NCBI GenBank assembly: GCA_905147135.1
Contig: LR990065.1
Location: 1,116,001-1,180,000, forward strand
Direction: 5' to 3'
DNA from: Blastobasis lacticolella
Lineage: Eukaryota; Arthropoda; Insecta; Lepidoptera; Blastobasidae
Length of the DNA: 64,000 nucleotides
The position numbers and the translations under genes were made by a program. Positions 2,156 to 61,505 of this stretch are shown here, piece after piece (the stretch's first letter is position 1; each line of letters begins with the position of its first letter). Under the pieces are notes generated by a model. That model saw only the letters and a list, made by a program, of their open reading frames with translations, was not told the origin of the DNA and made no database searches.

Positions 2156-2159
2156 TTGA

Positions 2160-2395
2160 CGACCTGAGTGGTTCAGTTGGTTAACATGCCGGTCGCCACG
2201 CAGAAGTCCCGGGTTCGAATCCCGGCCGAGTATAAATTGAAATAATGACTTTGAATTTCTGTTACGGGTCTGGGTGTAGTATATGTAATAAGTATATATT
2301 TTAAAAAAGTATATAAGATGTTCATCAGTTATCTATACCACCCATAACACAAGCTTTGCTTACTTAGTGGCTAGATAGCGCTGTGTTAGTTTGTC
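2160..2395 (+). mobile_element. tRNA-derived SINE (Metulj-like), copy 1
   Basis: The head carries an A-box-like gagtggttcagttggttaac and a B-box gggttcgaatcccg, as in RNA polymerase III promoters. The body (ctgttacgggtctgggtg) and tail (ctagatagcgctgtgt) recur in copies at 26,101-26,340 and 43,281-43,665. Such elements are moved by LINE machinery; this one encodes nothing. I match it to Metulj-type lepidopteran SINEs from memory, so the family name is tentative while the SINE call is firm. Confidence 0.85.
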
Positions 2396-18399: not shown

Positions 18400-20955
18400 A
18401 AGAAACGGCAAGAAACCCACAGGTACATTTATATATGATTACATTGCATTGATAAATTTGTCCATTTTTTGTTGTCAATGACAATTGTCAAATGTCAATT
18501 GATACATTTGTCAAATTTGATTCAGAGTTATCAGAAACCTTAAGTGATTGCAAGCTGGCGCTCCATAGAGTCAATTTTTGAAAATCTGGCTGATAATTAA
18601 ATGCCGTTGCCGACTACTGGGTAAGCCAATAACGGTATTAGGGCAACGGCAACGTTATTGGCAGTATACTCGTACATTTTCTATAGGTCAAGACTTTATA
18701 TATGCCTAATCTTTAATGCCAGGACACATCCACCTAGAAGACAAAATCCTAAAATTAAACAATGTAGCCGAATGGATGCAGGCGGGAAAACCAAAACAAC
18801 TTGTAACTTGGATTTATTTGTGAGAGATATATAAGAATACAAAGTAATCGCTACAGGGCCACCGGAAACAACACAACCGTAGTAAGCCGAATATTCGTGA
18901 ATATAACAAAACGACCAAATAGGATCCCGAGAAGTGCCTATTTAGTGCTAGTTGTTGTAGTCAGGAGAAGAAACTAATACTGAATCGAATACATTTACAA
19001 AATCAGACGGATATCTTATTAAACAGCAGCTACAATTCGTAAGCGCGATGTAACTTACCGACACTGCCATCTAGTGGCGTCGCGATGAACTATATATGTA
19101 TAGGTCGTTACAACAATTATTTACCCGTGTATAAAAGAAAAAAACAGGAATTCATTCATTTAGGAACATAACTTTGAAAGCGCTGGCCAGAACAGAAACT
19201 GGGCGTCCAGTACTAAATAACGTTATTCTAATAGCCTATAAAAACTGAAACATTGGGTGTATAACTACATTTGACAACTAAATAAAAAAAATTTACGAAT
19301 TGTTTGCTCTATCGCAAAATAATACTTTTATTTATCTGGCCCTTTTAGACTTTTTAGTCCAAAAATGTATGAAACGTTAATGATGTCTACAAATAAGCTT
19401 TTGCTTCAAACCCATTTATCAGATAAGTCGTCGTGCTGTATTACGCACGCATACGCGTGTGCGGACGCCCGGCCAGCTGAATCCGCGTTGGCGCGATGCG
19501 ACTGCTTACACCGATTGAGTCCGGAAGCTAGAACGAAACATATTTATCTCGTTTCAAATTCCAAAATATTATTTTAATTGACGATTTAAATGTAGATATA
19601 ACAAAATAGTATTGATTTCAAATCACAGGAGTGCCTTAGATTAATGATACTCATGGTCTGTTTGCTGCCCATCTCCATCCCACGAGAGTTGAAAATTGCC
19701 TTGATTGTACAATTAAAAACTAAATTAAAATCTACTGTAAACAGAAAAGACTTCGATATAGAAAGTTAGTTGACTTGGCCAAAAATTCAACATCCAAATC
19801 GATGACGTCACAATAAATTAATGAAAGTGAATTTATATCTTGAACGAATTGATTACTCCGAGCGTGTAAAAAGCGAATATCATACGAATGAAATGTAAAG
19901 TATATAACTTTTTGAAATTAGAACAAAAATTTTGAACACATTTCTACTATACAGTGACAGCTGAAACATAATGAGCAATGCATAACTTCCTTGAACTGTA
20001 AAAATAAATATGAGTAAAATTATTGTTGATTTAAAATGATGGTGTAGGCATTTGACAAGAGTCACAAAAACAGGAAAACCATACCAAAAGTTTCATTACC
20101 AAATACAGTCAAAACAATTTAAATGTGTTAATTATTTTTATTTCATGGTACATTGTGGTTAATTACGTCATATGCATATCAGCAACTCTAGAAACTTTCA
20201 AAACACGTAAATTGTGGGAGTTGGCGTGGAGTTTTGGGTTTTAACCACTGAATTTTCCATACAAAAATACTCTGCTTTTTTGAACTATTTATGAGTTTAT
20301 GTTTTACGATATAAAAGCGCTCGTAAATGTCTCGTTGAATAAATTGGTTTCTTACTAACGTTCTTGAACGCATTATGTATTCTTATCCAATAGTGACTCA
20401 TGTGACGTGAAAATCCAGCGCGATGAAAATGTCGTATACAATAGCGCAAAGTAATATCTGCTGAATTTAAACCTGATAGTCCATTTTCGCTGAGAACAAT
20501 CAGATCATTGGATTATCCATCACATTTTCTTCTAACAGCTGCAGTTTGTGTTTGTTTTGGTGTTTTGAGTTGAAAAATCTACTGACGGTATTCTACAGAA
20601 ACTATTAGATCCTAGATTAGATCTCATTTTTGCTGTAAACTGATCAAAGCTGATCTAATTTAACGATCGAACATCGTTTCTTTTATTTCTTCACTTCATG
20701 ATTTCGCAGATTTGAGATGAAAAATAAAAACGAAAATATTTACTGCTTACATCCTTAAGTTTATTAAAAGTTTAAAAAAATTTGGATATGTTGTACTCAT
20801 GATTGTTAATCTTAATGACTGTTGACAAAATAAAAATACTTCAATTATACATAAATCTTAGTCTAATTCATCTATAGCTAAACATTTGGTATACATTAAT
20901 AAAAACTATAATGAAATACATTGAAATTTCATAGTGATCCATATTAGATTTAAGC
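18400..20955. other. AT-rich DNA left of the PTP block, no gene seen
   Basis: There are no protein-like frames. Small structures include an inverted pair around gccgttgccg/caacggcaacg at 18,603-18,655 and the short repeat tgacaattgtcaaatgtcaattg near 18,480. A segment at 19,150-19,370 begins with gcgctggccagaacagaaac and ends tctggcccttttagactttt; its ends resemble the MITE at 39,990-40,300. Confidence 0.4.
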
Positions 20956-20959
20956 TAAA

Positions 20960-21730
20960 TTACAATACTGATGATCCATTAAGGAAATACTCATACAAAG
21001 CATAGTAGCAAAAATAATAATGATGCGTTTCGGACAAGCATTTGAACCTCTGCTGTCTTAATTTGGCAACAATTGAAAATACATTTTTTTTTCTGCAAAT
21101 ATTTTGAAAGAGAGATATCAATTGCGCAGTAAACCATTGTTCGATCTAACCCATTACTGCAGTGCACCAAAATTGGTTTAAGATTCCAATAACATTCATC
21201 AAAATATATTGTACTTTCCCTTCCTTTTCCCTCTCCACCAACGACCCGAGCTTCGTAATTTTAAGAGTTGGTGAGATTGTCCAACTTCTGATGGTGCCGA
21301 CTGTGATATTTCCAAATCGAAGCGACTTTCCATTTTGAGGATGCCAGTAGAGATAACCTTTTTCGTTTTCCTCGGGTTTGTTGAGCATCACTATAATATT
21401 GGTTTGATTCTTCAATACTGTTTTCCACAGAGCCTTGGCACCCTCTGAAGACTGTGGGGTTTCGGTGGCAATGTACGCGTTGGGTTGCTTGTATCCTTGG
21501 ATGTAACTGGCATTGATGATGGTCGAGTCGTTTTCAAGTAGATTCACACGGTTACTCTTGAAGACAAGCCTGTTCTCGGGTCCAGCAAATGCGTACGCCT
21601 TGAGCTTTGATGGTACTTCAGTCTTTAAAACTTTATTATGCTCTTCGAAGAGACGCTCGATGAAATCATATTTCTGCACCTCGTTGATGAAGTCCTTCGG
21701 GGACAATGATTTTGATTTTAAATTCCTCAT
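20960..21730 (-). pseudogene. Bracovirus-type protein tyrosine phosphatase, broken
   Basis: The minus-strand frame opens at ATG 21,730 and encodes 194 residues ending at 21,146. It has the pTyr-loop NASYIQGY, the IATETPQSSEGAKALWKTVL helix and NIIVMLNKPEENEKGYLYW, the usual order in the N-terminal two thirds of a PTP. It then leaves frame. The phosphatase signature HCSNGLDRT is encoded in another frame with the Cys codon at 21,159-21,161, and that frame runs on to a stop at 20,960 through a Q-loop-like RQQR. The stretch that should carry the WPD loop, some 40-50 codons, is missing between the parts. So two lesions, a deletion and a frame change, disable it. PTPs of this class dephosphorylate phosphotyrosine, and in bracoviruses they are thought to disturb host haemocytes. 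Intronless, like its two relatives here. Confident as a PTP relic; bracovirus origin is inferred. Confidence 0.9.
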
Positions 21731-21776
21731 TCTGGTCAATTAGCACAGAGCTAGTCGATTCAAGTACACAGAGATA

Positions 21777-21811
21777 ACTGAAGTACAATGCTTTGCAATC
21801 CCCTATTTATA
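21777..21811 (-). promoter_or_regulatory. TATA box and TCAGT initiator of the broken PTP
   Basis: On the minus strand TATAAATA (21,804-21,811) is followed by TCAGT (21,777-21,781), 30 bases from the start of one to the start of the other. The ATG lies about 50 bases downstream. The same arrangement is found before the PTP at 28,739. Predicted from sequence only. Confidence 0.7.
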
Positions 21812-22430
21812 TGATTCTATTGTCCTTATGATGCATCGCTGATGATTTAATGACGTGAAATTGATTAATATAATATAATTATTTCACTCATGGCATAAAC
21901 ATATTCTAGTTTAACGTAAACAACCGCAATTGTGGTCGAATAGTCGCAAATGAAAACGCATCTTGTTTGTAAAATGAAAAATTGAGTCGTAAACGTCACA
22001 ATAAAAGAAGAAATTTGTCATCGTAAAAACGGATCGTAAAACTAGTTATTTCTTTATTAAATTAAGAAAGTAAGGTAAATGCGCCTGTCTGGAAACACGT
22101 AGAAGATATTTTAACATTAATTTTCATTCACTTATGCATAGACCACCAAAGGATTGTTCACTATACTTTAGGTATTGCATGAATAATTTGTTTTTCGTGA
22201 AACATCAGAACACGAATTATTTTTAATGTCACTAGTTAATCATTTTTACTTCAATTAATCATTATTTTGTTGTTTTCTGTACTGAAATGTCTAAGCAAAT
22301 TACCTAACGAAATGTAACGGCAATCATGTGCGCAAATGTAATGTTTTCTTCTTATAAAGCAAAATTAACTGATTGCATTTAGGAAATTAAGTTTGTTTTT
22401 ACATTTTCAACCCTATTTCCACAACCCGGG
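21812..22430. other. AT-rich DNA between PTP relic and tandem repeat
   Basis: No coding or repeat features recognised. Confidence 0.4.
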
Positions 22431-22439
22431 AAAAAAAAA

Positions 22440-23190
22440 ACATATATAATCATGTATGATCATATATGAAAGTGCCCATATATTATTACATATGGTCAGA
22501 TAAGAAAATTGGCCTGATATGATCCTATATGGTCATACATGATTTGATATAACTATATATGATAAGATACAATCATATATTCAAGAACATTATTATATTT
22601 TTTGTTGTTAAAATTTTTTAATAATATATTATTAATTTATTAAAATCACATAATTTTTACTATTATTTAAAAATAACGAATTTTCATTTATAAAAAATGA
22701 ATAAAAAAAGTTGAGAGTCACCATGACTTAATTGTGACGGTCACCCACCCAAGTTCTAACCACGCTCAATGCTGCTTAACTTCAGTTATCTCGATGGTCC
22801 TTGAATTCCCCGGCTGCTGTCCTGCTGATATGTTATCTTAGTTGAATTACAAAGTACATAAAGTAAAAGATTAATATACATATGATCTTATAAGATCATA
22901 TACGATCATATATGAATCATATATGATTACATATGGATCATATATGGGCCGTATATGATCATATATACTACATATCAGATCATATATTGACTATACATGA
23001 TTATATTTGTATCATATAAGATCATACCAGATCAAATATGGGTCATATATGATAATATATAGTCAATATATCCTAATATATAGTCAATATGATAACATAT
23101 GTATCATATATGATCATATGTTGTCCACATGTGGCAATTTATAACTTACATATTATCATATATGTTTCCATATATTATAACATACTGGGT
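22440..23190. repeat. catatatgatcatatat palindromic repeat field
   Basis: Two clusters (22,440-22,580 and 22,880-23,190) consist of loosely repeated units such as atcatatatgatcatatatg, each self-complementary, with variants ggtcatatatgata and tggtcatacatgat. They are separated by about 300 bp without the motif (22,590-22,875). The units can form many alternative hairpins. No similar field occurs elsewhere in the window. Confidence 0.85.
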
Positions 23191-23234
23191 ACTTGTTACG
23201 ACGTGTAGTTGCCTAAGGCTCCCGTGAAAAGAAA

Positions 23235-23408
23235 ATGTTTTCTGCTCAATCTTTGGCTCAGGCGGCAGTCATCAGATTAGAATAGAGATGATCTCTAGAA
23301 AGAAAATTCACCAGACTTCAGACAGACTTGAGCCAAGTCAGGTCTGAATTATCCACGGCTCAGCGAGATTTGGACAGAGTGAGATCTAATGTCCGATACT
23401 CATCTTGA
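23235..23408 (+). pseudogene. Decayed coiled-coil reading frame
   Basis: From the ATG at 23,235 one frame gives MFSAQSLAQAAVIRLE, then two stops three codons apart (TAG and TGA), and then an open stretch including TRLQTDLSQVRSELSTAQRD and LDRVRSNV before a TGA at 23,406. The second half has a heptad-like spacing of Leu/Val and alternating charge, as in a coiled coil, and codon use looks protein-coding although the surrounding DNA is AT-rich. A splice-donor-like aaaggtatac follows at about 23,416. No family recognised. It may be an old exon of the transferred block or a chance frame. Confidence 0.4.
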
Positions 23409-23409
23409 A

Positions 23410-23980
23410 TATGAAAGGTATACTGTATTTCTTAGTTATCTTGAAATCTCATTTCCATGCATCAGTTTTTTAAAAGCGTTACAATTTTGGGTTTATGTTA
23501 AGCTAATACTTTGAGATTAAGATAAAAAATCAATGACAACGTGATAACTTGAGCAAGTAGAGTCAGCGCCGGTGAGGTCATTAATCAATATCATCACACG
23601 CCAAATTCATGCATTGGCCTGATGAATGTTAGCCAACTTAAGAAGCAAGAAAGTGAATAATAGTGTAATACTTCAGATCCATTACAAAGATTAAATGCAA
23701 AAGTACATTTCAAGATAAACTTAAGCCTTAACAAAATAAATTCATACAAATCTTCCAACAAATCTTATAGTTAACGAGATAATTCTTACAGACTATGATT
23801 ATAAGAGTACAAAAGTTCACACAACCTTATAAATGCTCTCAGCTGCCATTTTACTCAATTTTAAAATAATACGTAACATAAAAATTACATGTAAATACTA
23901 ATGCTAATGATTGAGTCAGCCTTGAAAATGGCAGTTGTCAGTGATAAAAAGGCAAGCTTTGGTAAAAATTATGGATAAAA
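23410..23980. other. Intergenic DNA 3' of the spliced gene
   Basis: AT-rich, no coding frame. A likely polyadenylation region for the minus-strand gene lies here, but no single signal stands out. Confidence 0.35.
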
Positions 23981-23982
23981 TT

Positions 23983-25193
23983 TTAGAGCATTGAGGCTAC
24001 TCTCACGAATAGGTAGTACATGAATAGTAGAAATATTGTTAGAATGATGCCAAGCCCTATCAAGGCGTCCAATTGCTCCCGTAAGCGCCATCTGGAACAA
24101 AAAGATAACTTTAAAATAAGATTTTTTATGTTATAGAAAGAAACTGTAGGATAAATACCATGGTTTTGAAAATGCGATAGATTTTTGAATTGATTTTTTT
24201 CACAAGAATAGTAGGGTCCTTATTAAACGTAAACTGGTGTAGTACCGTCGAAATCCTGGAAAATTCAAAAAGAAGTCACAACGCAGCCTTTCGAAAGTAG
24301 AGCACACCCACATGCTTGCGCTTTGTGAGGTGTGCAATTAGTTGAGTGGAAATAACACACATAGAACAGACAGTTTATGATTGTCAAAAACTTACTCCAT
24401 GATCTTAATCTTCGGGTACGTTGTCTTGAGAATTGGTTTGTGAACCAAGTTACCGGTAATGCCTCTAATTTCCAGGATTTTGCAGATGTCTGGAACCGCA
24501 ATCGTTATTTCTCCACGTCCCGGCATCTTTTGAATCGATTCCATATCAAGAGAATGGAAATTAAGATTTTCAGTTTCTAATGATCTGAAATTGAAATATA
24601 AATCACAGTAATAACATAAGTAGGTATAATAGAAGTAAAATACTTTGTAAAACTTACATATCATTTCGCTTTCCACCAGAAATTAGTACAATCTCTGACG
24701 GCAAGATCAGATCAATTTTATAGAAATTATCCGGTCTGTAAATAGAAAACACATTTTAAAATCTTGAACCTTCAGAAGTAAATGCAGGATTTAGAATAAG
24801 AATACTTACATTTCTTCAATTATTTTGAAAACAAATCCAATTCTCAAATCATTTTGTATCAGCTCTGTAGAAATGTTGTTTATTGTTAAAATAACACGTT
24901 GACCTTCTAAGTAATGCACTATCGCATTTCGCACAGCCTTCAAAATTTTGATCGGAATTTCTTCGCAAAGCCACGCGCTCGGTACTTGAATCCCAAAAAT
25001 TATGTTCTGGTAATCTTCCATAATTGACGATCTAAAAACAGTTTCAATATGATTTAACCAAAACTTTTGAAAAACACATCCAGACAAAACTGTTCTAATT
25101 ATTATGCAGAATCTATAAATACCTTGATGTTGCGCACGTCGAAATAGGTTTTGCGCCGGTGCTTGGAAGATGTTGTGCAGTAAAATGGTACAT
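23983..25193 (-). CDS. Six-exon gene of unknown function, possible C-terminal membrane anchor
   Basis: I do not recognise this protein. Exons on the minus strand are 25,193-25,123 (ATG TAC CAT start), 25,031-24,810, 24,735-24,658, 24,584-24,396, 24,255-24,159 and 24,091-23,983. The first four junctions keep phase 2 throughout, with donors gtaagt at three of them and pyrimidine-rich acceptors. The first three introns are 91, 74 and 73 bp, short as in many bracovirus and insect genes. Exon 2 encodes the soluble-looking segment MEDYQNIIFGIQVPSAWLCE and onwards; exon 4 includes EITIAVPDICKILEIRGITG. Exon 6 has a frame with a strongly hydrophobic run, LIGLGIILTIFLLFMYYLFV, just before its stop, which would anchor the protein by its C terminus. 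The last junction is uncertain. The clean donor after the exon 5 ATG leads into a different 40-codon frame; the anchor frame needs a weaker donor 14 bases on. This could be a lesion. Total about 230-240 residues. It lies between PTP genes on the same strand, which suggests that it came with them. Confidence 0.6.
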
Positions 25194-25199
25194 GTTCTT

Positions 25200-26100
25200 T
25201 CACTGTTAACTTATTTGCTGCAATATCCAAAAAGTTGTCAAATATTCTTACAAACTTTACTGGGATACGAGAGCACACGCGTACACCTTGAAGGTGTTTT
25301 TTGAACTGCTGAATTGACTGCGTCTCAAGTAGCTATTCATGCAATAACAAATACCGAAGATTGTCGATCTTATTTATCGATCAAAGTCGATTTTTGCTTG
25401 TCATCTCAACTGCATTGTCAAAACGTATAAACTTGCATGTATTCTAATAAGATTATGATCATAGATGTAACGTTGGTAGTAAAGCACATATTCTTCAAAT
25501 CGAAGGTCAATGAAGGTCAATGAAGGTCACTATCATGAACCAAAGCTTAGACCATTTTTAAAACGAAAATTTGTACTAGTCCCACCACCAGCGGCTATTA
25601 GCTATTACTGATTGTTTACTCATTAAGATCTTTCTTCTAAATCCTGCTACAATTATTTTTCTACAATCCTTATAAGATTTTAATGAAAGTACACTTATTT
25701 TTTAAGTGAATATATTTAATGTGTTCAAAGATGAGCATAATTGGCCAATTAGTTTAGAAACGATGGCAATTTAAAGTTATCAAAATCCCAAATTTCTTAG
25801 GAGCATGCCGGGGAGCAACTAAATTGTTGATAGCTTGGGACTAGCTTGGGTGTGGCGAACAAAGGGTTCTAATGAAAGGTCATCGACGTTGCTACATTGG
25901 TATTTATGAAAATGATTGATAGTGTGCGTGCATACGTGCATGAGTATAATGTGTGCACGAATGAAATCATAGCCTGTTTAGTACAACGAGATAATCAATA
26001 AACTTGATTACTCCTTTTACAATGCATTAACGAAATAAGAACATTTTATTAGATTATGGTTTGTTATAAAAGTGGATAAGTACCATAGATAGTATTTTCG
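25200..26100. other. Intergenic DNA
   Basis: The upstream region of the spliced gene lies here; no TATA box is obvious. A triplicated tcaatgaaggtcaatgaagg-type motif occurs at 25,506-25,530. Otherwise there are no features. Confidence 0.4.
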
Positions 26101-26340
26101 ACGACCTGAGTGGTTCAGTGGTCAACATCGTTAGCCACGCAAGAGGTCCCGGGTTCGATTCCCGGCCGGGCAGAAATTTAAATGATGAATTTTAATTTCT
26201 GTTACGGGTCTGGGTGTTCTATGTATAATAAGTATGTATTTATAATAAAAAAGTATATAAGTAGTATATCAGTTAGCTAGCACCCATAGCACAAGCCTTG
26301 CTTAGTTTGGGGATAGATGGCGCTGTGTAAATTTGTCCAC
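26101..26340 (+). mobile_element. tRNA-derived SINE (Metulj-like), copy 2
   Basis: The head has gagtggttcagtggtcaac and B-box gggttcgattcccgg; body and tail are collinear with copies 1 and 3. It is followed by a T-rich run at 26,342-26,368. It lies inside the PTP block, so the insertion is younger than the arrival of the block. Confidence 0.85.
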
Positions 26341-26369
26341 GATTTTTTTTTTTATTTTTTTTTTATTTT

Positions 26370-27914
26370 AGCTTGTTACTAAGAAGAAAAAAGGTCTTGG
26401 AGGCGATTATTTTAGAGATTACTTATTACACTAGATAGCTACCGATAAATTGATTCTCATACTTAACCATATTTACTAAGTTACCATAACCATAATGAGA
26501 ACAAATATGGAAGATCAATCTATAATCAGGTAGTCACGTTATATGATTGTAAAAAAAGTTCGGTCATAGTTTACACGTGAGGTTAAGCTCCGAAATTAAA
26601 TAAATAAACGTTTACTTTCCCGTCAAGGACACCGGTTTATTGACACCGTAACCTATCAGCGGAGCGCTGTTGGTATAATAGATTAGTCACAGCTGTGCGA
26701 AAATAGGTAACATATTCTGTGTGGCTACCGTACAAAAGTAAGTATTGTTTTTAACGCTGCGAATAATGAAGATAGACAAAAATGAATTAGTACATCACTA
26801 GTACAACTGAAATCACGACTCGACATAAAACCAACCAAAGACCCACGTGTTAGTGGCGTGGAAAGTCTAGCCGTATGATGTGAAACCTGTTTATTCTTTG
26901 GTAGTGTGTACATTCAGATGAATACGTATGCGTACATGAAATTCATGTGTTTATGCAATACCAAATTCATTAAAGACATAACGATTTCGTTGAAAGATAG
27001 AATATTTTAAATGGATTTTTTTTTACCTTTTGTTCAAATAGATGAACCGTTTCCTACTGCTTTGATAAAATATGAAGCCTTGTTGCTATGGAACAGCTGC
27101 CAGAGAGCAGGACATTGCTGTATCAAAATTGTTCAATTTGACATAACGCATAGAATTGAATTTAGTGCGTTGTAAATAAGCAATTAAACCTCAAACCTCA
27201 TTTAATGGATGCGTAAGCGTTTTGTTCCAAATTGGCGCGCACTGCGAATGATGCTTTAAATAAGTTGTTAATATTCCTCACTTACTAATCAACTCAGCAA
27301 ATTTCAGAACTATGTTTATCTCAATTTGATTTTTTCGTCTGATATTTCTGAATGCAAACTTTTAGACGGCTTTAGAATTTCCCTAGTAATTTGTTTCAAA
27401 TTTTTTAATGCGCACCCAATAGTTTACTAGTTTTAATTACAGTTTTACTTGTCAACTAGTTGCATAATTGCATAGAAATATTAATGTCGGAACAATTGTA
27501 ACATAAAAGTCAACTTGCTATATCCTCAATTACTTTTGAAATTTCAAATCAGTAGTTCAAATATAGTAGTAACACAATTGTGCAATTATAAATTGAGTGA
27601 TAATAATCGCGTCAGTTAGTGCTCCGGTGTTGTGTAAATGAGTGCCACTTATGAGTTACTCATTGAGAGTTCATGAGGAGCAATTGAATAAATCATTGTT
27701 AATGCGATTCAACGATTCAATTATCTGTTGACTGTTTCACTTATGATATCTAAACAATACCCGATATGAAATATTGTTTCATGGCTAAAGAAATTTCATT
27801 GATTATATCGTGGTGTAATGAATCTCAAAGTAACTGTTACATAACTTTTTATTACAAAATACAGCATAAACACAAAAAGTAGTTATTCATTGAGCAAAAA
27901 ATAATGAGTATGAT
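26370..27914. other. AT-rich DNA between the SINE and the intact PTP
   Basis: No protein-like frame or repeat recognised. AATAAA on the minus strand at 27,848-27,853 is a plausible polyadenylation signal for the PTP that ends at 27,915. Confidence 0.45.
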
Positions 27915-28739
27915 TTAGGATATGACAATATAATAGTACAAAACCATATAGATAAAAATGTACTGATTAACATTAGATAGACAGTTGGGTCTTTGCTTTC
28001 TGAGTTTTAATACCGTGGAAAATACGTCGAGTTTCCCTGTATCGTCTAATCTTGACAAACAGATGTCTATGGCACAAAACGCCATGGATCTTCCTAGCCC
28101 ACTATTGCAGTGAACAACTATCGGGCTTGCATGCGTATCACTAGCTGATTGGCCGTATAACTTTGTCGTTAGTACCAAGTCAATGAAGCTGAATTCGTCA
28201 GGAGATAAATCGCGTTCTTGCCATTTTTCGTACAACAAGTGAGTGACTTTCAAACAGTCACCATCTTCATTCGTCACCTCAAGGTGCGTAATTATGAAGC
28301 CTGGATGTGTCGAATCAACCTTGACCGTAGCTATCTTAAATTTTCCAAATTGCATCGTTACTTTTTCTACTGGACTCCAATAACGATAGCACTGGGTCTT
28401 GCCATTTTCAATAGTACTGCACAACATAACGATGATTTGAGTTCTGTGCTGCCATATTATTCTCCAGAAGTAGGAACTGGTGTTCTTTATAGTAGGTGCT
28501 TGACACACGATGTACTTCTTAGAGTTCTTGAAACCATCAACGTAACTAGCGTTCATATAATCCTCAGAGTTTTCTTCTTCTGGAAAACGTACACGGCTTC
28601 GATCAAAGCACGTCATGTCTTGTGTCTCAATCTTCATAATGTTGTCGTGCTCATCACAAAGAAATTTACTGGCGTTGGTACGGTCGATCAATTTAACGAG
28701 ACCACTGCGACTCAGTGTCTTAGAATTTCCATTCCCCAT
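27915..28739 (-). CDS. Bracovirus-type protein tyrosine phosphatase, intact
   Basis: A 274-residue intronless reading frame encodes a complete single-domain PTP, close to the roughly 300 residues usual for bracovirus PTPs. In order: DRSRVRF (residues 46-52), pTyr-loop YMNASYVDGF (61-70), IVCQAP with the following FWRIIWQ helix (77-97), QIIVML (101-106), a WPD-loop position reading W173-Q-E175, and the signature HCNSGLGRS with nucleophile Cys211 and Arg217. The Q-loop region has KQRPNC. The general acid Asp is replaced by Glu175 and the Pro by Gln, so activity may be reduced. The protein starts MGNGNS, a good N-myristoylation motif, pointing to membrane attachment. PTPs of this class remove phosphate from tyrosines; in bracoviruses they are linked to suppression of host blood cells. 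It is divergent from the PTP-like gene at 29,219, 480 bp apart. Its own TATA and initiator are present. Sure as a PTP; origin and activity are inferred. Confidence 0.93.
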   Translation of the reverse strand: MGNGNSKTLSRSGLVKLIDRTNASKFLCDEHDNIMKIETQDMTCFDRSRVRFPEEENSEDYMNASYVDGFKNSKKYIVCQAPTIKNTSSYFWRIIWQHRTQIIVMLCSTIENGKTQCYRYWSPVEKVTMQFGKFKIATVKVDSTHPGFIITHLEVTNEDGDCLKVTHLLYEKWQERDLSPDEFSFIDLVLTTKLYGQSASDTHASPIVVHCNSGLGRSMAFCAIDICLSRLDDTGKLDVFSTVLKLRKQRPNCLSNVNQYIFIYMVLYYYIVIS

Positions 28740-28815
28740 TTCAATTATTGCAGGTACAAAAGAGTTTGGGTTGATATTTACTTAGAAATCGAGCAGGGTT
28801 CAGGAATGAGCTACA

Positions 28816-28850
28816 ACTGATGTCTTTTTAACTGTAAATCGCCATTTATA
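28816..28850 (-). promoter_or_regulatory. TATA box and TCAGT initiator of the intact PTP
   Basis: On the minus strand TATAAAT (28,844-28,850) is followed by TCAGT (28,816-28,820) 30 bases later, within ATCAGTTG, an arthropod initiator. The ATG at 28,739 is 77 bases beyond. Geometry is the same as in front of the broken PTP. Confidence 0.75.
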
Positions 28851-29124
28851 GAAGCTCCGTTTCCTTAATAACTCTCTGACACATATATGAATAACTCAGT
28901 GGTTAGATTATTGTTACTATTCAATATATATTCTAAATATTACACACAAGGGCAAATATTACATGCCTTTATCAATTGACGTCATAAAAAAAAACCCAAG
29001 TAGGATAATTTGAATTAAATAATATAACTACATGCTGAAAAACATTATCAACAGGAAAGTATATTAATATAATTAACCACAAAACGTAATAACTTTGGAA
29101 TATAACTCATAATCGCGTTACGCA

Positions 29125-29155
29125 TATTCTATTTGCTTCAATGCAGAGTCAGTAA
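29125..29155 (+). promoter_or_regulatory. Possible initiator of the inactive PTP
   Basis: A TCAGT initiator occurs at about 29,149-29,153 with an AT-rich catattcta about 26 bases upstream. The TATA match is weaker than for the other two PTPs. Confidence 0.4.
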
Positions 29156-29218
29156 AATAGAATCATTTGTTTTGATCACACGTGTTCTGTTTCAATCTAC
29201 TACTGGATTTATTTGACG

Positions 29219-30178
29219 ATGGCTGTAAACCTCTCAGCAATTTATGGAGCTCGCAGTTTCATGCGAAGATTAGAAGACCCGAAATACATAGAAATACTTC
29301 TTCGGGAGCACTTGGGCATCATCAACATGCCAATTGAAGGCACCAGTGACATCTTCCGGCAGCCTAAAAACAGGAAGAAGAATCATAACTTGAATTACCC
29401 ATGCTGGGATATTTCTCGAGTGGTTTTGAAATCCTACAATGATTCAGACTACATCATTGCCAATTATGTGAGGGGACACAACTTTAGTTCCAAATTCATC
29501 GCAACGCAGCAACCAATGGCCAATACTTTCGATGATTTTTGGAGCATGGTCTGGCAAGAGAACTCTCGTGTGATTGTGATGCTCAATGGTACCAAGTCAG
29601 AACCATCAGGCCTTCAATACTTTCCTACGAACCAAGATCATATTATCTTAGCAAAATTCATAATCAAGACAGAAAGCATCAGGATGGAACCCCAGTACAC
29701 CAGCACAACCTTGACTGTTATTCACAAACCAACCGGAGAATCAAGGACAATACACCACTTCAAATATTTGGACTGGCCAGAAAATGGTATTCCGGACTCA
29801 AAATTTTTTCTTGAATTTCTGCTAGCTGTCAACAGGCAGGACCAACAAAATTTAACAGAAGCGATACAGACCAAGCAGTCTTTACCCGGTCCAATTATTA
29901 TTCATAGTGATAATGGTGTAGGTAGAACTTCAACATATTGTGTGATCGACATGTGCTTGTATTCTTTAGTACATACGGCATCTGTTTCCGTGCCGCTGAC
30001 AGTTTTAAAAGTTGGACAACAACGAAATGTTAGTATCCAAAATCCAAATCATTACTTTTTCATTCATAATGTCTTGTTTTACTTTTTGAATACCATTATA
30101 TCAAATAGTTCAATGTTCGTCGAATTTCGCATTCATCTGACCAAAAAGGACTTGCATTTGTTAACATTACATTGTTGA
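29219..30178 (+). CDS. PTP-like protein with catalytic Cys replaced by Ser
   Basis: The first ATG of the frame is at 29,219 (an upstream in-frame TTG is not a likely eukaryotic start), giving 319 residues without introns. The PTP fold is complete: DISRVVL, DYIIANYVRGH for the pTyr loop, FIATQQP, DDFWSMVWQ, RVIVML, the WPD-loop W186-P-E188 and the P-loop HSDNGVGRTS. The nucleophilic Cys is Ser230, while Arg236 is kept. The general acid is Glu188 instead of Asp. With Ser in place of Cys the enzyme cannot form the phospho-cysteine intermediate, but such proteins may still bind phosphotyrosine, as with known inactive bracovirus PTPs and substrate-trapping mutants. The long frame without stops suggests selection or recent origin. 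AATAAA overlaps the stop (30,179-30,184) and another lies at about 30,201. The C-terminal 25 residues extend past the usual end of the domain. Confidence 0.92.
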   Translation: MAVNLSAIYGARSFMRRLEDPKYIEILLREHLGIINMPIEGTSDIFRQPKNRKKNHNLNYPCWDISRVVLKSYNDSDYIIANYVRGHNFSSKFIATQQPMANTFDDFWSMVWQENSRVIVMLNGTKSEPSGLQYFPTNQDHIILAKFIIKTESIRMEPQYTSTTLTVIHKPTGESRTIHHFKYLDWPENGIPDSKFFLEFLLAVNRQDQQNLTEAIQTKQSLPGPIIIHSDNGVGRTSTYCVIDMCLYSLVHTASVSVPLTVLKVGQQRNVSIQNPNHYFFIHNVLFYFLNTIISNSSMFVEFRIHLTKKDLHLLTLHC

Positions 30179-30189
30179 ATAAACATGTA

Positions 30190-31500
30190 ATCTACTGAGA
30201 ATAAAAGAACTATCAGTATTGATCAGTGTATCCTATTTTAAGTCAACCATTGCTGCCATAAGAGTAAAGCAATCAGATTCATGGTCTTATAACAATTTCT
30301 TATTTCTGAAATATGTTTCTTTACAAAAAATTGCTAATGTATCGATGTAGCATATGTTTACTATAAGAGATGAGTCATCTCATAACTAATGAGGGCTATT
30401 CACCTCATAATCACGCTGCGTATTGTGTAACCAAGGCCAAAAGGAACCGGCGTAAAGTTGTCAAATTCTTATCGTTCAAAGACGACCACGTTGATTTCAT
30501 TTATAGAACGTGTTGGCTCAAAGCTGTTTATTCGCGAGTTACTTATAGGCGTTGTCAGAGAGTGAACGTGTTTGAGTCGCGATAACGTCATGATTTTTGT
30601 GTTGCATTGTGTCAAAACGTGAGACCAACAGTAACTATATTCATATTTTGAATATAACATGTTCTTTTGATTGGGCAAGTGATGATGATGATGATGAGAG
30701 AAGGATTATTGTTTGGTCACCAAACTCAATCGTTATAGGTATAAAAACATTTAATGCGAGTGCAGAAAAAAGGGCGCGTTCTAAATGCTTATGTATCTAA
30801 CAGATAAAGTTTCAAATTGACAACCAATTTTGCACGTAAAAAAATTTATTTTCAAGTTGATGAGTTTTTCCGATTATGATTTATAAATTTCTACATGGAA
30901 AACGTTTCTGTTAATAATTCTAGACACTCTTATTACGGACCACTTGCCAGTCTAATTGTAGTTTTAAAAATTCGTCTCCCAAATACTTTTTTATACAATT
31001 ACATAGTTTTGCAGCATGATTCCACTCCGTCTTAATTACACACCTGTTATAAATTATTTAGACGCTAATGCCGCATCAAATTATTTTATCTCTTCCAAAG
31101 TTTCTAGGAAGAACTTCTAAACCTGAAACCATGATAACTTCTGGTCTGCTCTGATGCATTAGTAACCGAGACTATTTGCATATCAAAGTCAGAAAATCCC
31201 CTGATAATCCCATTTCGGAACCCACTAATAAGCACTACAGGAATATCTGTAATAATTCTACGGAAACTGAAATATGCGTATGAAAAACAAGAGCTTTTAA
31301 AACCAAAATATTATGCAAAAAAGAAAGTTATAAAAAATATTACAAACAAAAATTGTGCACTTCTTTTGAAAAAACTTAAATTATCTAGAAATAATGATAC
31401 TTCACTCGAATAAATGAACATTAATTAATGACAAACGTGATTGTCAAATAACTACGGTGGCAACATAACGGCTAATGTCGCGCATATTCATATTCATTTA
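30190..31500. other. Intergenic DNA at the right side of the PTP block
   Basis: Frames of about 70 codons near 30,370-30,800 show no motif. A (gat)n microsatellite lies at 30,681-30,698. No viral junction sequence could be recognised by eye. Confidence 0.4.
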
Positions 31501-35894: not shown

Positions 35895-38800
35895 ACAAGC
35901 TACGGACCTTATATAGGAATTTTAAACGAAAGAAACAATTTCTTACCAACTCAAGCACATGATTATCAAACCGAAGAAGGCTTATCCATATTGACACCCA
36001 GATTCCTAACTTGATCTACTAATTCTATGCTTGCGCCATTGACATATAGCGTTGGATTTTGAGCTAAGATGTTATCAATTTGCTTAGTAGAACCTAATAT
36101 CATAAACTTTGACTTAGCAGGGTTTGGCAATAAACCATTCCTGTTTGATCATGTTGCAATACTTTACAAATCTTCATTCATTTTATCAATCGCTTGTTTA
36201 ATATTTAGAGGTGAATCAGAAATGTACAACTGTACATCATCCGCATAGCAATGATATAAACAATATTGTATAGTATTAACTAGATCCGATCTATACAGGA
36301 CAACGAGCAGAGGCCCCAGTCCCTGAGGCACCCCACGTTGCACTCCTTGCATGTTCGACAGTCTAACACTACCATCCCGAGCAGTAATTTTGACTGTTTG
36401 ATAACGGTCGCATAGGTAGCTATCAAACCAAGCCAGAGCGTTACCATTAAGACCGTAATACGACAATTTAGAAAGCATGAGTGGTATGTCCAGACTGTCG
36501 AATGCCCTCGAGAAGTCCAGGAGTGTCAAAACAGTACCTCGGCCAACATCCTGCTTAGCCAAAATATTATCAGTCACGTCCAAAAGTGACGATATGGTCC
36601 CACGACCCTTACGAAAGCCGGACTGAAAATTAGGCAACATACCATTTTCCTCAACGTATTTATAAAATTGAGCATGCATGGCCTTCTCCAAAACCTTTGA
36701 CATGAAGGGTAATATACTAATCGGTCTTAAATCTTTAAGAGTCATTGGATGATCAACTTTAGGCAGTGGAGTAACAATCGCGATTTTCCAAGGTCCAGGG
36801 ACAATACCAGCAGACATTGAGCAATTAATTATATGAGTTAACACACGTGAAGTACGCGGGAGAGTGAGTAATATCATATCCCTGCTGATGCCATCCGCAC
36901 CGATTGCATTACTTTTAATTGAAGTTATGAAGCGAAACACATCGCTTTCAGAGACAGCAGCAAGGCTCATAGTGGCTTTACTGTATTTGTTGGACATGAA
37001 ATAATGTATATCCGACTCTGGAACGCTGTTGGGAACCTGTACATTCAAAAAATGATCGTTAATGTCATTGGCGTCACTTAAAGAATCAGGAAGATAATCC
37101 TGTTTATTGGGATTAGTTAAAACCTTGTCTTTCACATGTTTCCATAATGACTTGCTGTCCTTAAAGTTTGAATTAATGTAATGATTAAAGTAAGCACGTT
37201 TTTCATTAAAGATACAACTGATTACAAATTTTTTTAGTTCTTTGTATCGTTCTCTGTCCGCATCCGATTTTGTTTTCCTATATTTGTCGTGTGCTTCATT
37301 ACGTAGGTCGATCATAAGTAAAATCGTATCTGTAATCCATGGCAGTGAATGATCTTCTTTTATATTGATAGTTTTAAGTGGTGCATGACAATCAGAGACA
37401 AAATTAACTTATTAAACTGCTCAACCATAGAATCCACAGTTGTCAACCCCAGTACTGATTCCCAGTTAATTGTTTCATTTAAGTGATGATTAAAGCTCTC
37501 CATATTTATATTTTTAATTGGTCGGTATGAAATTACTTTAGGCGGACACCGTTCCTTCCTAAATGACAACGTTACGTTGACCATGGCATGACCGAGTGAC
37601 CCTGAAATATTGGACACGACTACCTCGCCAGCACCTAGACGTGAATCAGTGCATTCGAGATCAATTAAAGTCTCTGTCTCATTTGTGAAATGTGTGGGTT
37701 GTGTGACCAACTGTTTAAGTTGCATATAATTAAGAAAGTTCTTAAACTTAGTAGTTTTACCACTAGTTTCGTCAAGCAGATTTATATTAAAATCACCCAG
37801 CAACACCACATGATCATATTTTGAGAAAAAAGTAACGGACTCAGTCAATGCGTCAAGAAAACGGTCAATATCTACCCATTGTGGGCGGTGAGAAGTTCCC
37901 ACAACCAAAGTACGTCCATTCAGCTTTGTAGATAACCACATCTGCTCAATCGGAGCATCAGGGTGTTTAAGAAGCCGTGCAGTTATATCCCGTTTTATGT
38001 AGAAACGTACTCCGCCACCTCGGCCGCCACGCATGTGTACCGGGCGCGGCGCGCTCCGCAGCCGATAGCCGGGCGGCGCGGGCGCGCGCGCCTCCTGCCC
38101 TGCGCGCAACCATGTTTCGTTTATTGCAACTATGTCTGCGTTGAAACGCTTCATTGCAATAATAAAATCGTCCTGTTTTGTATTTATAGAACCCGCATTG
38201 TAAAGGCCCAATCTAAAAAACTTCACCCTAGGAGCCATTAGAATAAAAACAAAAAGCAGCAAAAAATAAAAGCGCAGTTAGATAGAAAGCGGATGCACAC
38301 AAGACTAAATACATAATATATACTTTAAGCACTATATGCGATGTATGATATGTGTATGTATGATTTATAAATAAATATTCTAGAGTAAGTGAAAGCCATA
38401 CCATACTGTTGCTGCAGCACACCCATACGAAATTAACAAATAAAATATAAATAAAACTAAAAAAATTTACATAAATACCATATACAACTATTGCTACAGC
38501 TACTATAGCAATAATAAAAGCAAAGCCAATATAATAAATAAAAGAACAAAAAGCGCTTAAGCCAACTTTAAAACTACAAAAAGCAAAACAGGAATACCTA
38601 CAAAATCAAAAAAATTATGCCCCAACCACATCTATACCAAAAACCCTTTTAAGGTCATCCTCAGTGCGTATCCAATGCTTAGGAGAGCCCTCCCCTTTAT
38701 GTTTGCGTACGTAAAGGTTTCCTCCGCGCGTCCAGACGTAACTCCAATTCAAACTAGCAGTCGCCTTCCTCGCCAACTTGAACAGCTCACGGTTGACGCG

Positions 38801-43280: not shown

Positions 43281-43665
43281 GACGTCCTGAGTGGTTCAGT
43301 GTTTAACATGCTAGTCTGTCATACAAGAGGTCCCGGGTTCGATTTCCTGCCGGGCAGAAATTGAAATTATGAATTTTAATTTCTGTTCCGGGTCTGGGTG
43401 TTCTATGTATAATAAGTATGTATTTCAAAAATGTGTATAAGTACTATATCATACCCATCCCAAACCATGGAGCATTTACTCTCTTGTCCACTTTGTCCTG
43501 CTACCTGAACTAGGGAGGAACTGTTCCTGGCGACTGGCCTTTGCCGTGGCCAACTATACGGCAGGTCACATCTAGGGTTTTCAAAAATTGACTCGACCAA
43601 GAAGAAGCCCATAGTACAAGCTTTGCTTGGTTTGAGGCTAGATGGCGCTGTGTGAATTTGTCTAC
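43281..43665 (+). mobile_element. tRNA-derived SINE (Metulj-like), copy 3, interrupted
   Basis: The head has gagtggttcagtgtttaac and B-box gggttcgatttcc. The body matches copies 1 and 2 until 43,451, then resumes at 43,608 with cccatagtacaagctttgct. The piece in between is a LINE fragment. Confidence 0.85.
43452..43607 (+). mobile_element. LINE RT tail fragment inside the SINE
   Basis: The plus frame reads MEHLLSCPLCPAT, a stop where a Cys would be expected, then TREELFLATGL. This is the C-terminal Cys-rich tail of Jockey-like RT proteins (EHLL.CP.CP..CT.EDLF.AT). It lies between two collinear halves of the SINE. Confidence 0.75.
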
Positions 43666-61194: not shown

Positions 61195-61505
61195 CCTTGG
61201 CGTTAGTGTCCCGATTGTGCTTTTGCGCCCGAAGGCCCGGGATCCGCCTTGACCATGATACAGGTTTTCGGAGATCAGGTAATTACAGTGGAGCGACTGC
61301 CATCTGACCTCCGTGACCCTGCTACAAGGGGACCCTGACCAGATTGGATCATGGTTACACATTCAGTCGCCTGTATGTGCAGGTTTCATCACGATGTTTT
61401 CCCTCACCGTAAGAGCATCATTGGTACATGGCCGCAGCGGGATTCGAACCCGGTACTTCTCGCTTATTAGTCAAATACCCCAACCGCTCGGCCACTGAGG
61501 CTCTC
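61195..61505 (-). mobile_element. SINE with tRNA-like head (minus)
   Basis: The reverse complement begins gcctcagtggccgagcggtt (A-box TGGCCGAGCGG) and has B-box gggttcgaatcccg about 40 bases on. These form a 72-bp tRNA-like head at 61,434-61,505, followed by the shared body down to 61,200 (also at 285-515, 10,330 and 15,085). It is a SINE and not a functional tRNA gene, because the body is attached at the point where a terminator would be needed. Confidence 0.8.

What the first reader, a model, noticed from the sequence alone, without database searches (positions are those of the whole stretch)
18400..31450. Bracovirus-type PTP gene cluster resident in what looks like a moth or butterfly genome
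Three PTP-family genes and one spliced gene sit in a 10-kb block that is poor in old transposons, flanked on both sides by dense lepidopteran-type repeats. Single-domain intronless PTPs in divergent multicopy clusters are a hallmark of bracoviruses, and bracovirus-to-Lepidoptera transfer has been reported. The SINE at 26.1 kb shows the DNA is long resident. Seen: the PTP motifs and repeats. Inferred: transfer, and the identity of the host genome.
Basis: partly seen in the sequence, partly recalled or inferred. Interest (0 to 1): 0.88.

Follow-up and report, generated by a model that had tools for sequence, protein, structure and literature searches.

The report
Bracovirus gene units littering moth genome
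The window holds one of many copies of parasitoid-wasp virus DNA scattered through a moth's chromosomes, each with matching inverted ends and, where both ends were read, a duplicated 3-base target, which hints at how this wasp virus DNA gets into caterpillar genomes.

Summary
Three single-domain PTP genes lie in an 11.17-kb unit at 19741-30911. Mitochondrial ND2 places the host among gelechioid moths (best hit 83%). PTP1's top hit is a braconid PTP (51%), and three unit PTPs join different bracovirus PTP groups, so transfer from a braconid to a moth is supported.

Beyond the finding: the genome gave 148 PTP matches, with 141 of 876 candidates scored, in dispersed, near-identical units. One family has 36 units with both ends paired, on 19 contigs. 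Units of three families end in ACAG...CTGT inverted repeats resembling the bracovirus Host Integration Motif. All 19 units whose two junctions I read carry a perfect 3-bp target duplication, mostly TNA with CG favoured on one side. Copies of one target repeat without the unit confirm a clean insertion. The enzyme thus made a 3-base staggered cut, as transposases and retroviral-type integrases do.

I favour recurrent germline insertion of wasp-injected circles (0.6) over later transposition inside the moth (0.3). Germline polydnavirus insertions in moths are published; copy number and duplication look new, but the key 2023 paper was not readable here.

The parts
19741..30911 (.). Whole inserted unit (family A copy), 11,171 bp, ACAG...CTGT ends
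   Evidence: Same ends in 5 copies with unrelated flanks
19738..19740 (+). Left copy of 3-bp target-site duplication, TAA
30912..30914 (+). Right copy of 3-bp target-site duplication, TAA
19741..19771 (+). Left terminal inverted repeat, HIM-like
   Evidence: 25 of 40 identical to the right end read inward; 0 of 20000 shuffles reach that
30881..30911 (-). Right terminal inverted repeat, HIM-like; holds GAAATTTA, the published CvBV HIM 8-mer
   Evidence: The pattern match used a pattern drawn from these ends, so it is no independent proof
27915..28739 (-). PTP1, 274 aa, catalytic Cys and Arg kept (HCNSGLGRS), bracovirus PTP-Y-like
29213..30178 (+). PTP2, 321 aa, catalytic Cys replaced by Ser (HSDNGVGRT) in the window and the three other copies read, trap-type
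20994..21739 (-). PTP3, frame broken in this copy; intact copies exist elsewhere in the genome
24395..25210 (-).
25646..26614 (.). Nested insert not found in the other held copies, containing a moth SINE-like repeat (about 26096-26368)
   Evidence: repeat also at window 2158-2395 and 43281-43451 and in L012, L028
23111..23973 (.). Second stretch found only in the window copy
   Evidence: no other match in held DNA

Best explanation
The unit is a bracovirus DNA circle that a braconid wasp injected, that opened at its Host Integration Motif, and that was inserted into the moth germline by an enzyme making a 3-nt staggered cut at TNA(CG)-type targets, leaving a 3-bp duplication. The same has happened again and again with several circle types over a long time, leaving at least 36 end-paired units of one PTP/ankyrin family and eight left ends of the window's own family. 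Shown: exact ends, inverted repeats, target duplication, dispersal, bracovirus-type genes, moth host. Inferred: that each copy came afresh from wasp-injected circles, that the donor was microgastrine-like, and that the enzyme is of the DDE/retroviral-integrase type.
For: 19 of 19 units with both junctions read have a perfect 3-bp duplication (chance 0.019 each), T 16/19 and A 13/19 at its outer positions, then C 10/19 and G 12/19. Of nine sites tried for copies of the target without the unit, one (C24) had them: four held copies match without a gap across the insertion point. Inverted-repeat ends are shared by families A, C and D and resemble the published CvBV HIM (ACCAG/GAAATTTA; PMC8460044 passages). 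In CvBV the circles with a HIM carry 31 of 33 PTPs and all 5 ankyrins; unit C carries three PTPs and two ankyrin-repeat ORFs. PTP1, a family-C PTP and a family-E PTP join different bracovirus PTP groups, one nested among wasp sequences. Nested inserts in the five insert-bearing copies examined are not shared with other held copies. Both right-end types occur in four size classes of family C, as alleles of a recombining source would. Divergence runs from 6 mismatches in 11,015 bp (C2 v C28) to about 2% (window), so insertion was spread over time. PTPc changes lean synonymous: 13N:10S, expected N 0.763, p 0.029.
Against: No donor circle was available, so loss of the HIM spacer and presence of a single DRJ were not tested. 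Inverted repeats plus target duplication plus size classes are also the hallmark of a non-autonomous DNA transposon, and the copy number of family C is extreme. PTP1 shows no constraint among 5 copies (15N:2S); in PTPc the private changes alone give p 0.14 and the overall p is weak. The unit-C ankyrin's three named hits are Cydia pomonella proteins and the fourth is unnamed; none is bracoviral. All four family-C end rows differ from the HIM 8-mer at 2-3 of 8 places, and both A-left and D ends at one. In the tree, PTP1's link to the bracovirus PTP-Y group is 92/95, below the starred level, and four of seven unit PTPs do not join a named bracovirus group.
Confidence: 0.6

Rival explanations
1. 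A few bracovirus circles entered the moth once, and their HIM ends were then recognised as terminal inverted repeats by a transposase or integrase in the moth, so that the units now spread as non-autonomous DNA transposons carrying PTP and ankyrin genes.
For: Inverted-repeat ends, 3-bp duplication at 19 of 19, 36 end-paired units on 19 contigs, a class of 11 units within 9 bp of one size, near-identical copies on different chromosomes. 3-bp TWA duplications are known for Chapaev3 transposons (PMC4079192, passages).
Against: Several different circle types share the ends. Inserts examined inside copies are not shared. Size class and right end are reshuffled. No transposase-like ORF was seen: the ORFs of 150 aa or more in the window's unit A and the C20 unit C are PTPs, ankyrin-repeat ORFs and one ORF antisense to PTP1; shorter ORFs were mostly not searched. 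The genome-wide search for other elements with these ends did not complete, so a partner is not excluded.
Confidence: 0.3
2. One insertion was multiplied by segmental duplication.
For: Copies are very similar.
Against: In 19 of 19 units both host flanks start right at the unit end with their own duplicated 3-mer, and the flanks read differ between units; two units entered the same host repeat family at different points.
Confidence: 0.02
3. The moth elements are the older stock and bracoviruses took PTP/ankyrin circles and the HIM from a lepidopteran transposon.
For: Relatives also occur in Cydia pomonella and Euphydryas editha, the unit-C ankyrin's named hits are all from Cydia, and the HIM works like a transposon end.
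Against: The E-unit PTP is nested inside a mostly wasp group (99/95), the Euphydryas PTP inside the Cotesia PTP-Y group (99/99), and unit PTPs attach to wasp groups separately.
Confidence: 0.05
4. Ordinary moth cellular PTP genes.
For: The Pfam domain is the same; the Cydia relative is labelled 'non-receptor type 9-like' by its source.
Against: Intronless, multicopy, in units with exact ends; best hits are bracoviral/braconid at 51%. No clearly cellular lepidopteran PTP was in the tree, so this was not tested by tree.
Confidence: 0.01

Closest known systems
HIM-mediated bracovirus circle integration (CvBV, CtBV, MdBV, CcBV; PMC8460044 passages, PMC8549517 passages and section 23)
   Same: Circle opened at an inverted-repeat motif of 8+5 nt; PTP and ankyrin circles; dispersed insertion in Lepidoptera
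   Different: Those reports are of somatic insertions in hosts or of the wasp germ line, largely from chimeric reads; the passages I read mention no target duplication. Here: a moth germline assembly, many end-to-end units, 3-bp duplication at 19 of 19
Bracovirus-derived insertions in Lepidoptera (PMC4574769, PMC4190172, PMC5704228 passages; Heisserer 2023 known only by title and one citing passage)
   Same: Wasp-to-moth germline transfer of bracovirus sequence. [quoted passage not shown]
   Different: PMC4574769 found no complete circles and PMC5704228 describes ancient, rearranged remnants. Here units run end to end, many are recent, and one family has 36. I could not check what Heisserer 2023 reports
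HIM-mediated re-insertion of PTP circles into the wasp genome (PMC3573978 and PMC8549517 passages)
   Same: PTP circles cut at J1/J2 and inserted elsewhere in the genome
   Different: In the wasp, three cases in C. sesamiae and at least six in C. typhae; here dozens, in the moth
Chapaev3 DNA transposons (PMC4079192 passages)
   Same: Inverted ends, 3-bp TWA duplication
   Different: CAC...GTG ends and an own transposase there; ACAG...CTGT ends and no transposase seen here

Membership tests
HIM-integrated bracovirus circle | Bracovirus virulence gene families (PTP, ankyrin) | tested here: met
   PTP1, a C and an E PTP in bracovirus groups; ankyrin ORFs by Pfam, but their named hits are from Cydia pomonella
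HIM-integrated bracovirus circle | Ends at J1/J2, an inverted-repeat motif like the published HIM | tested here: met
   Gapless inverted repeats in A, C, D; GAAATTTA exact in the A right end, one mismatch in A left and D ends, 2-3 in C ends; ACAG against ACCAG. A likeness, since no donor HIM was held
HIM-integrated bracovirus circle | Loss of the 39-72 bp spacer between J1 and J2 | not testable with these tools
   No donor circle found: three viral-contig scans gave none
HIM-integrated bracovirus circle | A single DRJ (wasp excision site) inside the unit | not tested
   DRJ sequence not given in the text read
HIM-integrated bracovirus circle | Lepidopteran host genome | tested here: met
Cut-and-paste DNA transposon (non-autonomous) | Terminal inverted repeats plus fixed-length target duplication | tested here: met
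Cut-and-paste DNA transposon (non-autonomous) | An autonomous partner with the same ends and a transposase | not tested
   The pattern search of the genome did not complete (and repeats to 125)
Cut-and-paste DNA transposon (non-autonomous) | Amplification inside this genome (shared nested inserts) | tested here: inconclusive
   Nested inserts examined are not shared among held copies; a clean master copy cannot be excluded
Chapaev3 (CMC) transposon | CAC...GTG ends | tested here: not met
   Ends are ACAG...CTGT

The most novel reading that the evidence does not exclude
Bracovirus circles are transposons in disguise: the HIM is a pair of transposon ends cut by a DDE-type transposase or retroviral-type integrase with a 3-bp TNA duplication, and in this moth the inserted circles have gone on to spread as a high-copy transposon that carries wasp immune-suppression genes.
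Probability: 0.28. Interest if true: 0.95.

Novelty: new variant of a known kind. Interest (0 to 1): 0.78.

Why it matters
Which enzyme inserts bracovirus circles is debated: the passages read propose nudiviral tyrosine recombinases and, for some circles, retrovirus-derived host integrases. A 3-bp duplication at every unit whose two junctions were read makes this testable, because a 3-nt staggered cut is what DDE transposases and retroviral integrases leave. The genome is also a dated archive of one moth lineage's parasitism, and dozens of copies of immune-suppression genes in the intended victim raise the question whether they are harmful, silent or used.

Tried and rejected
Rejected: wasp contig (mitochondrial ND2 is gelechioid); segmental duplication (flanks differ). 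'No TSD' was my own first reading; the proper junction test overturned it. I first took stretches present in three sister copies but absent in the window for shared nested transposons (entry); they matched nothing outside the units in the held DNA, so I read them as unit-native and lost from the window copy.

Led nowhere: viral-contig scans and phage records gave no relative. The ankyrin search found Cydia pomonella and one unnamed protein, no bracovirus. Papers not held: Beck 2011, Heisserer 2023. Literature searches for a target duplication at polydnavirus HIMs: 28 papers with at least 2 of 3 terms, 25 listed; none listed holds both 'host integration motif' and 'target site duplication'; 11 papers, none on HIM by title. 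Inside papers, one search found no 'target site' or 'duplication' in PMC8460044, no 'target site' or 'duplicat' in PMC7843510, no 'target site' in PMC8549517.

Never answered (tool busy): genome searches for other elements with these ends, for two unit stretches (58, 60, 62, 66), for an ankyrin family (84) and for a nudivirus structural gene as control (107, 123). These questions stay open. Other busy answers were repeated until answered (41, 44, 47; 54; 55, 59, 63, 70, 72, 74, 78, 80), except, the window unit's right end, which was not asked again.
Full report
What is there. The window is bases 1116001-1180000 of contig C26 of a 577-Mb assembly in 45 contigs. PTP1 keeps the catalytic Cys and Arg. 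PTP2 has Ser for Cys in the window and in the three sister copies read, a substitution that PMC3573978 (passages) describes for some bracovirus PTPs thought to act as traps. PTP3 is broken in the window copy, and intact copies exist.

Host. Contig C45 is mitochondrial. Its ND2 best matches Tecia solanivora (83%), Parachronistis, Phthorimaea and other moths that I know, from recall, as gelechioids; 120 of 7015 hits are listed, and the names I recognise are all Lepidoptera. At 83% the species itself is not identified.

Origin. PTP1's 21 database hits are led by Glyptapanteles flavicoxis (51% over the whole length), Cydia pomonella (54% over 93%), an unnamed metagenome protein and Cotesia congregata/bracovirus PTPs. 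I read the Cydia and Euphydryas hits as bracovirus-derived, which is inference. In a tree of 28 proteins, PTP1 joins the Cydia protein (99/95), and that pair stands beside the PTP-Y group of Glyptapanteles and Cotesia (92/95, not starred). A family-C PTP joins Cotesia ptp.b (100/100). The family-E PTP joins the PTP-A pair of Cotesia (100/98) within a group that also holds a Microplitis protein and an unnamed one (99/95). The Euphydryas PTP sits inside the Cotesia PTP-Y group (99/99). PTP2 joins two unnamed proteins (100/99), the other two family-C PTPs sit together beside a long-branched unnamed protein, and PTP3's place is unsure. Several bracovirus PTP lineages therefore appear to have reached moths separately. 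No clearly cellular lepidopteran PTP was available for the tree, so the contrast with those rests on identity and gene structure alone.

A dispersed repeat. The PTP1 search of the own genome gave 148 matches; only 141 of 876 candidates were scored, and some matches are fragments of one gene. The window's unit recurs on C2, C28 and C24, with aligned pieces 95-99% identical, and in shorter form on C6, with unrelated flanks. Its left end has 8 matches at 94% or more, the window included, and 33 at 68-86%. The left and right ends of family C gave 40 scored matches each, at 96-100% and 97-100%, out of 95 and 105 candidates. Pairing ends less than 30 kb apart by script gives 36 units on 19 contigs, 5.8 to 23.7 kb, including 11 of 6868-6877 bp; 4 left and 4 right ends stay unpaired. 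Most interiors were not read. The C20 copy of family C carries three PTPs and two ankyrin-repeat ORFs.

Ends and target duplication. Family A, C and D ends align without gaps over the first 30 or so bases as inverted repeats; in A, 25 of 40 positions agree between the two ends, and 0 of 20000 shuffles reach that, while for D 24 of 40 agree and no shuffle was run. The published CvBV HIM has ACCAG and GAAATTTA at its borders, with 39-72 bp between them lost on insertion (PMC8460044, passages). The window's right end, read inward, has AACAG and GAAATTTA; A-left and D ends differ from the 8-mer at one place, family-C ends at two or three. I read both junctions of 19 units: 5 of family A, 12 of C and 2 of D. 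Nine came from the first fetch; one more held family-C copy (C2 near 21.45 Mb) lacks its left end and was left out. Ten were picked from the lists and all belong to the 6.6- and 6.87-kb classes. In 19 of 19 the three bases left of ACAG equal the three bases right of CTGT, and none has 4 or more in register. Position 1 is T in 16, position 3 is A in 13, followed by C in 10 and G in 12. Of nine sites tried, only that of the C24 unit had held copies of the target repeat without that unit: four run without a gap across the site with one TCA where the unit has two (one of the four is a 38-base match beside another unit).

How it works. A site-specific tyrosine recombinase does not normally leave a 3-bp target duplication; a staggered cut by a DDE transposase or retroviral-type integrase does (established knowledge of these enzymes). 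PMC8460044 (passages) reports that, besides nudiviral integrases, two retrovirus-derived host integrases affect some circles. The duplication fits that second route or an unknown transposase. The enzyme is inferred, not shown.

Repeated arrival or spread inside the moth. For repeated arrival: several circle types share the ends. Nested inserts in the five insert-bearing copies I examined (window, C20, two on C22, C1) are not shared with other held copies, and two 8-kb-class copies of the same structure show no large unexplained insert. Size class and right-end type are reshuffled: long-right and short-right ends number 2 and 1 in the 6.6-kb class, 7 and 4 at 6.87 kb, 2 and 3 at 8.0-8.2 kb and 13 and 1 above 9 kb, with 3 and 0 others, out of 36 (types read off the identities). 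In 22 of 39 PTPc copies by my count the changes are star-like, 13 nonsynonymous (one a stop) to 10 synonymous against an expected 0.763 (p 0.029); shared changes are 1 to 3 (p 0.044), private ones 12 to 7 (p 0.14). Against: PTP1 in 5 copies shows 15 to 2, no constraint; copy number is extreme; inverted ends, duplication and size classes are what a transposon shows; gene conversion could also reshuffle. With a recalled mutation rate of 2.9e-9 per site and generation, the C2-C28 split (6 in 11,015) is about 0.09 million generations and the window's about 2% roughly 3.5 million. Under neutrality some 40 fixed insertions in about 0.6 million generations (PTPc median 0.37%) need of the order of 1e-4 insertions per gamete. 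That seems within reach given 12-85 insertions per haploid genome in parasitised host tissue (PMC8549517 abstract). This estimate is inference.

What is new. Germline polydnavirus insertions in Lepidoptera are published: PMC4190172 (passages) reports 105 regions in two genomes, and the title of Heisserer 2023 speaks of massive germline integrations; of that I saw only the title and one citing passage. In the held library I found no report of a target duplication at HIM insertions (searches; finds within papers). The claim of novelty is limited to those searches.

Noticed in passing
G000 contig C8: C8 (21.75 Mb, 3.8% of the genome) holds 27 of 148 PTP matches by my count and 7 of 40 family-C left ends; unexplained enrichment.
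   Followed up: no
P0143-P0145 (Cydia pomonella), P0002: The codling moth has three ankyrin proteins 61-76% identical to the unit-C ankyrin, with different longest contigs, plus a PTP1 relative: a second moth that may hold similar units.
   Followed up: no
P0012 (Euphydryas editha): A butterfly PTP sits inside the Cotesia PTP-Y group, a separate and apparently younger transfer.
   Followed up: no
window 36164-38262: Two ORFs that look by eye like LINE reverse transcriptase and endonuclease.
   Followed up: no
window 61430-61501: tRNA-Ile (AAT) predicted on the minus strand.
   Followed up: no
G000, several chromosomes: Ten further COX1 matches besides contig C45, on nuclear contigs, nine over the family cut-off.
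   Followed up: no
L030 and L029 (C11 near 1.1 Mb): A further PTP unit family (E) with PTP ORFs on both strands; its ends were not mapped.
   Followed up: partly
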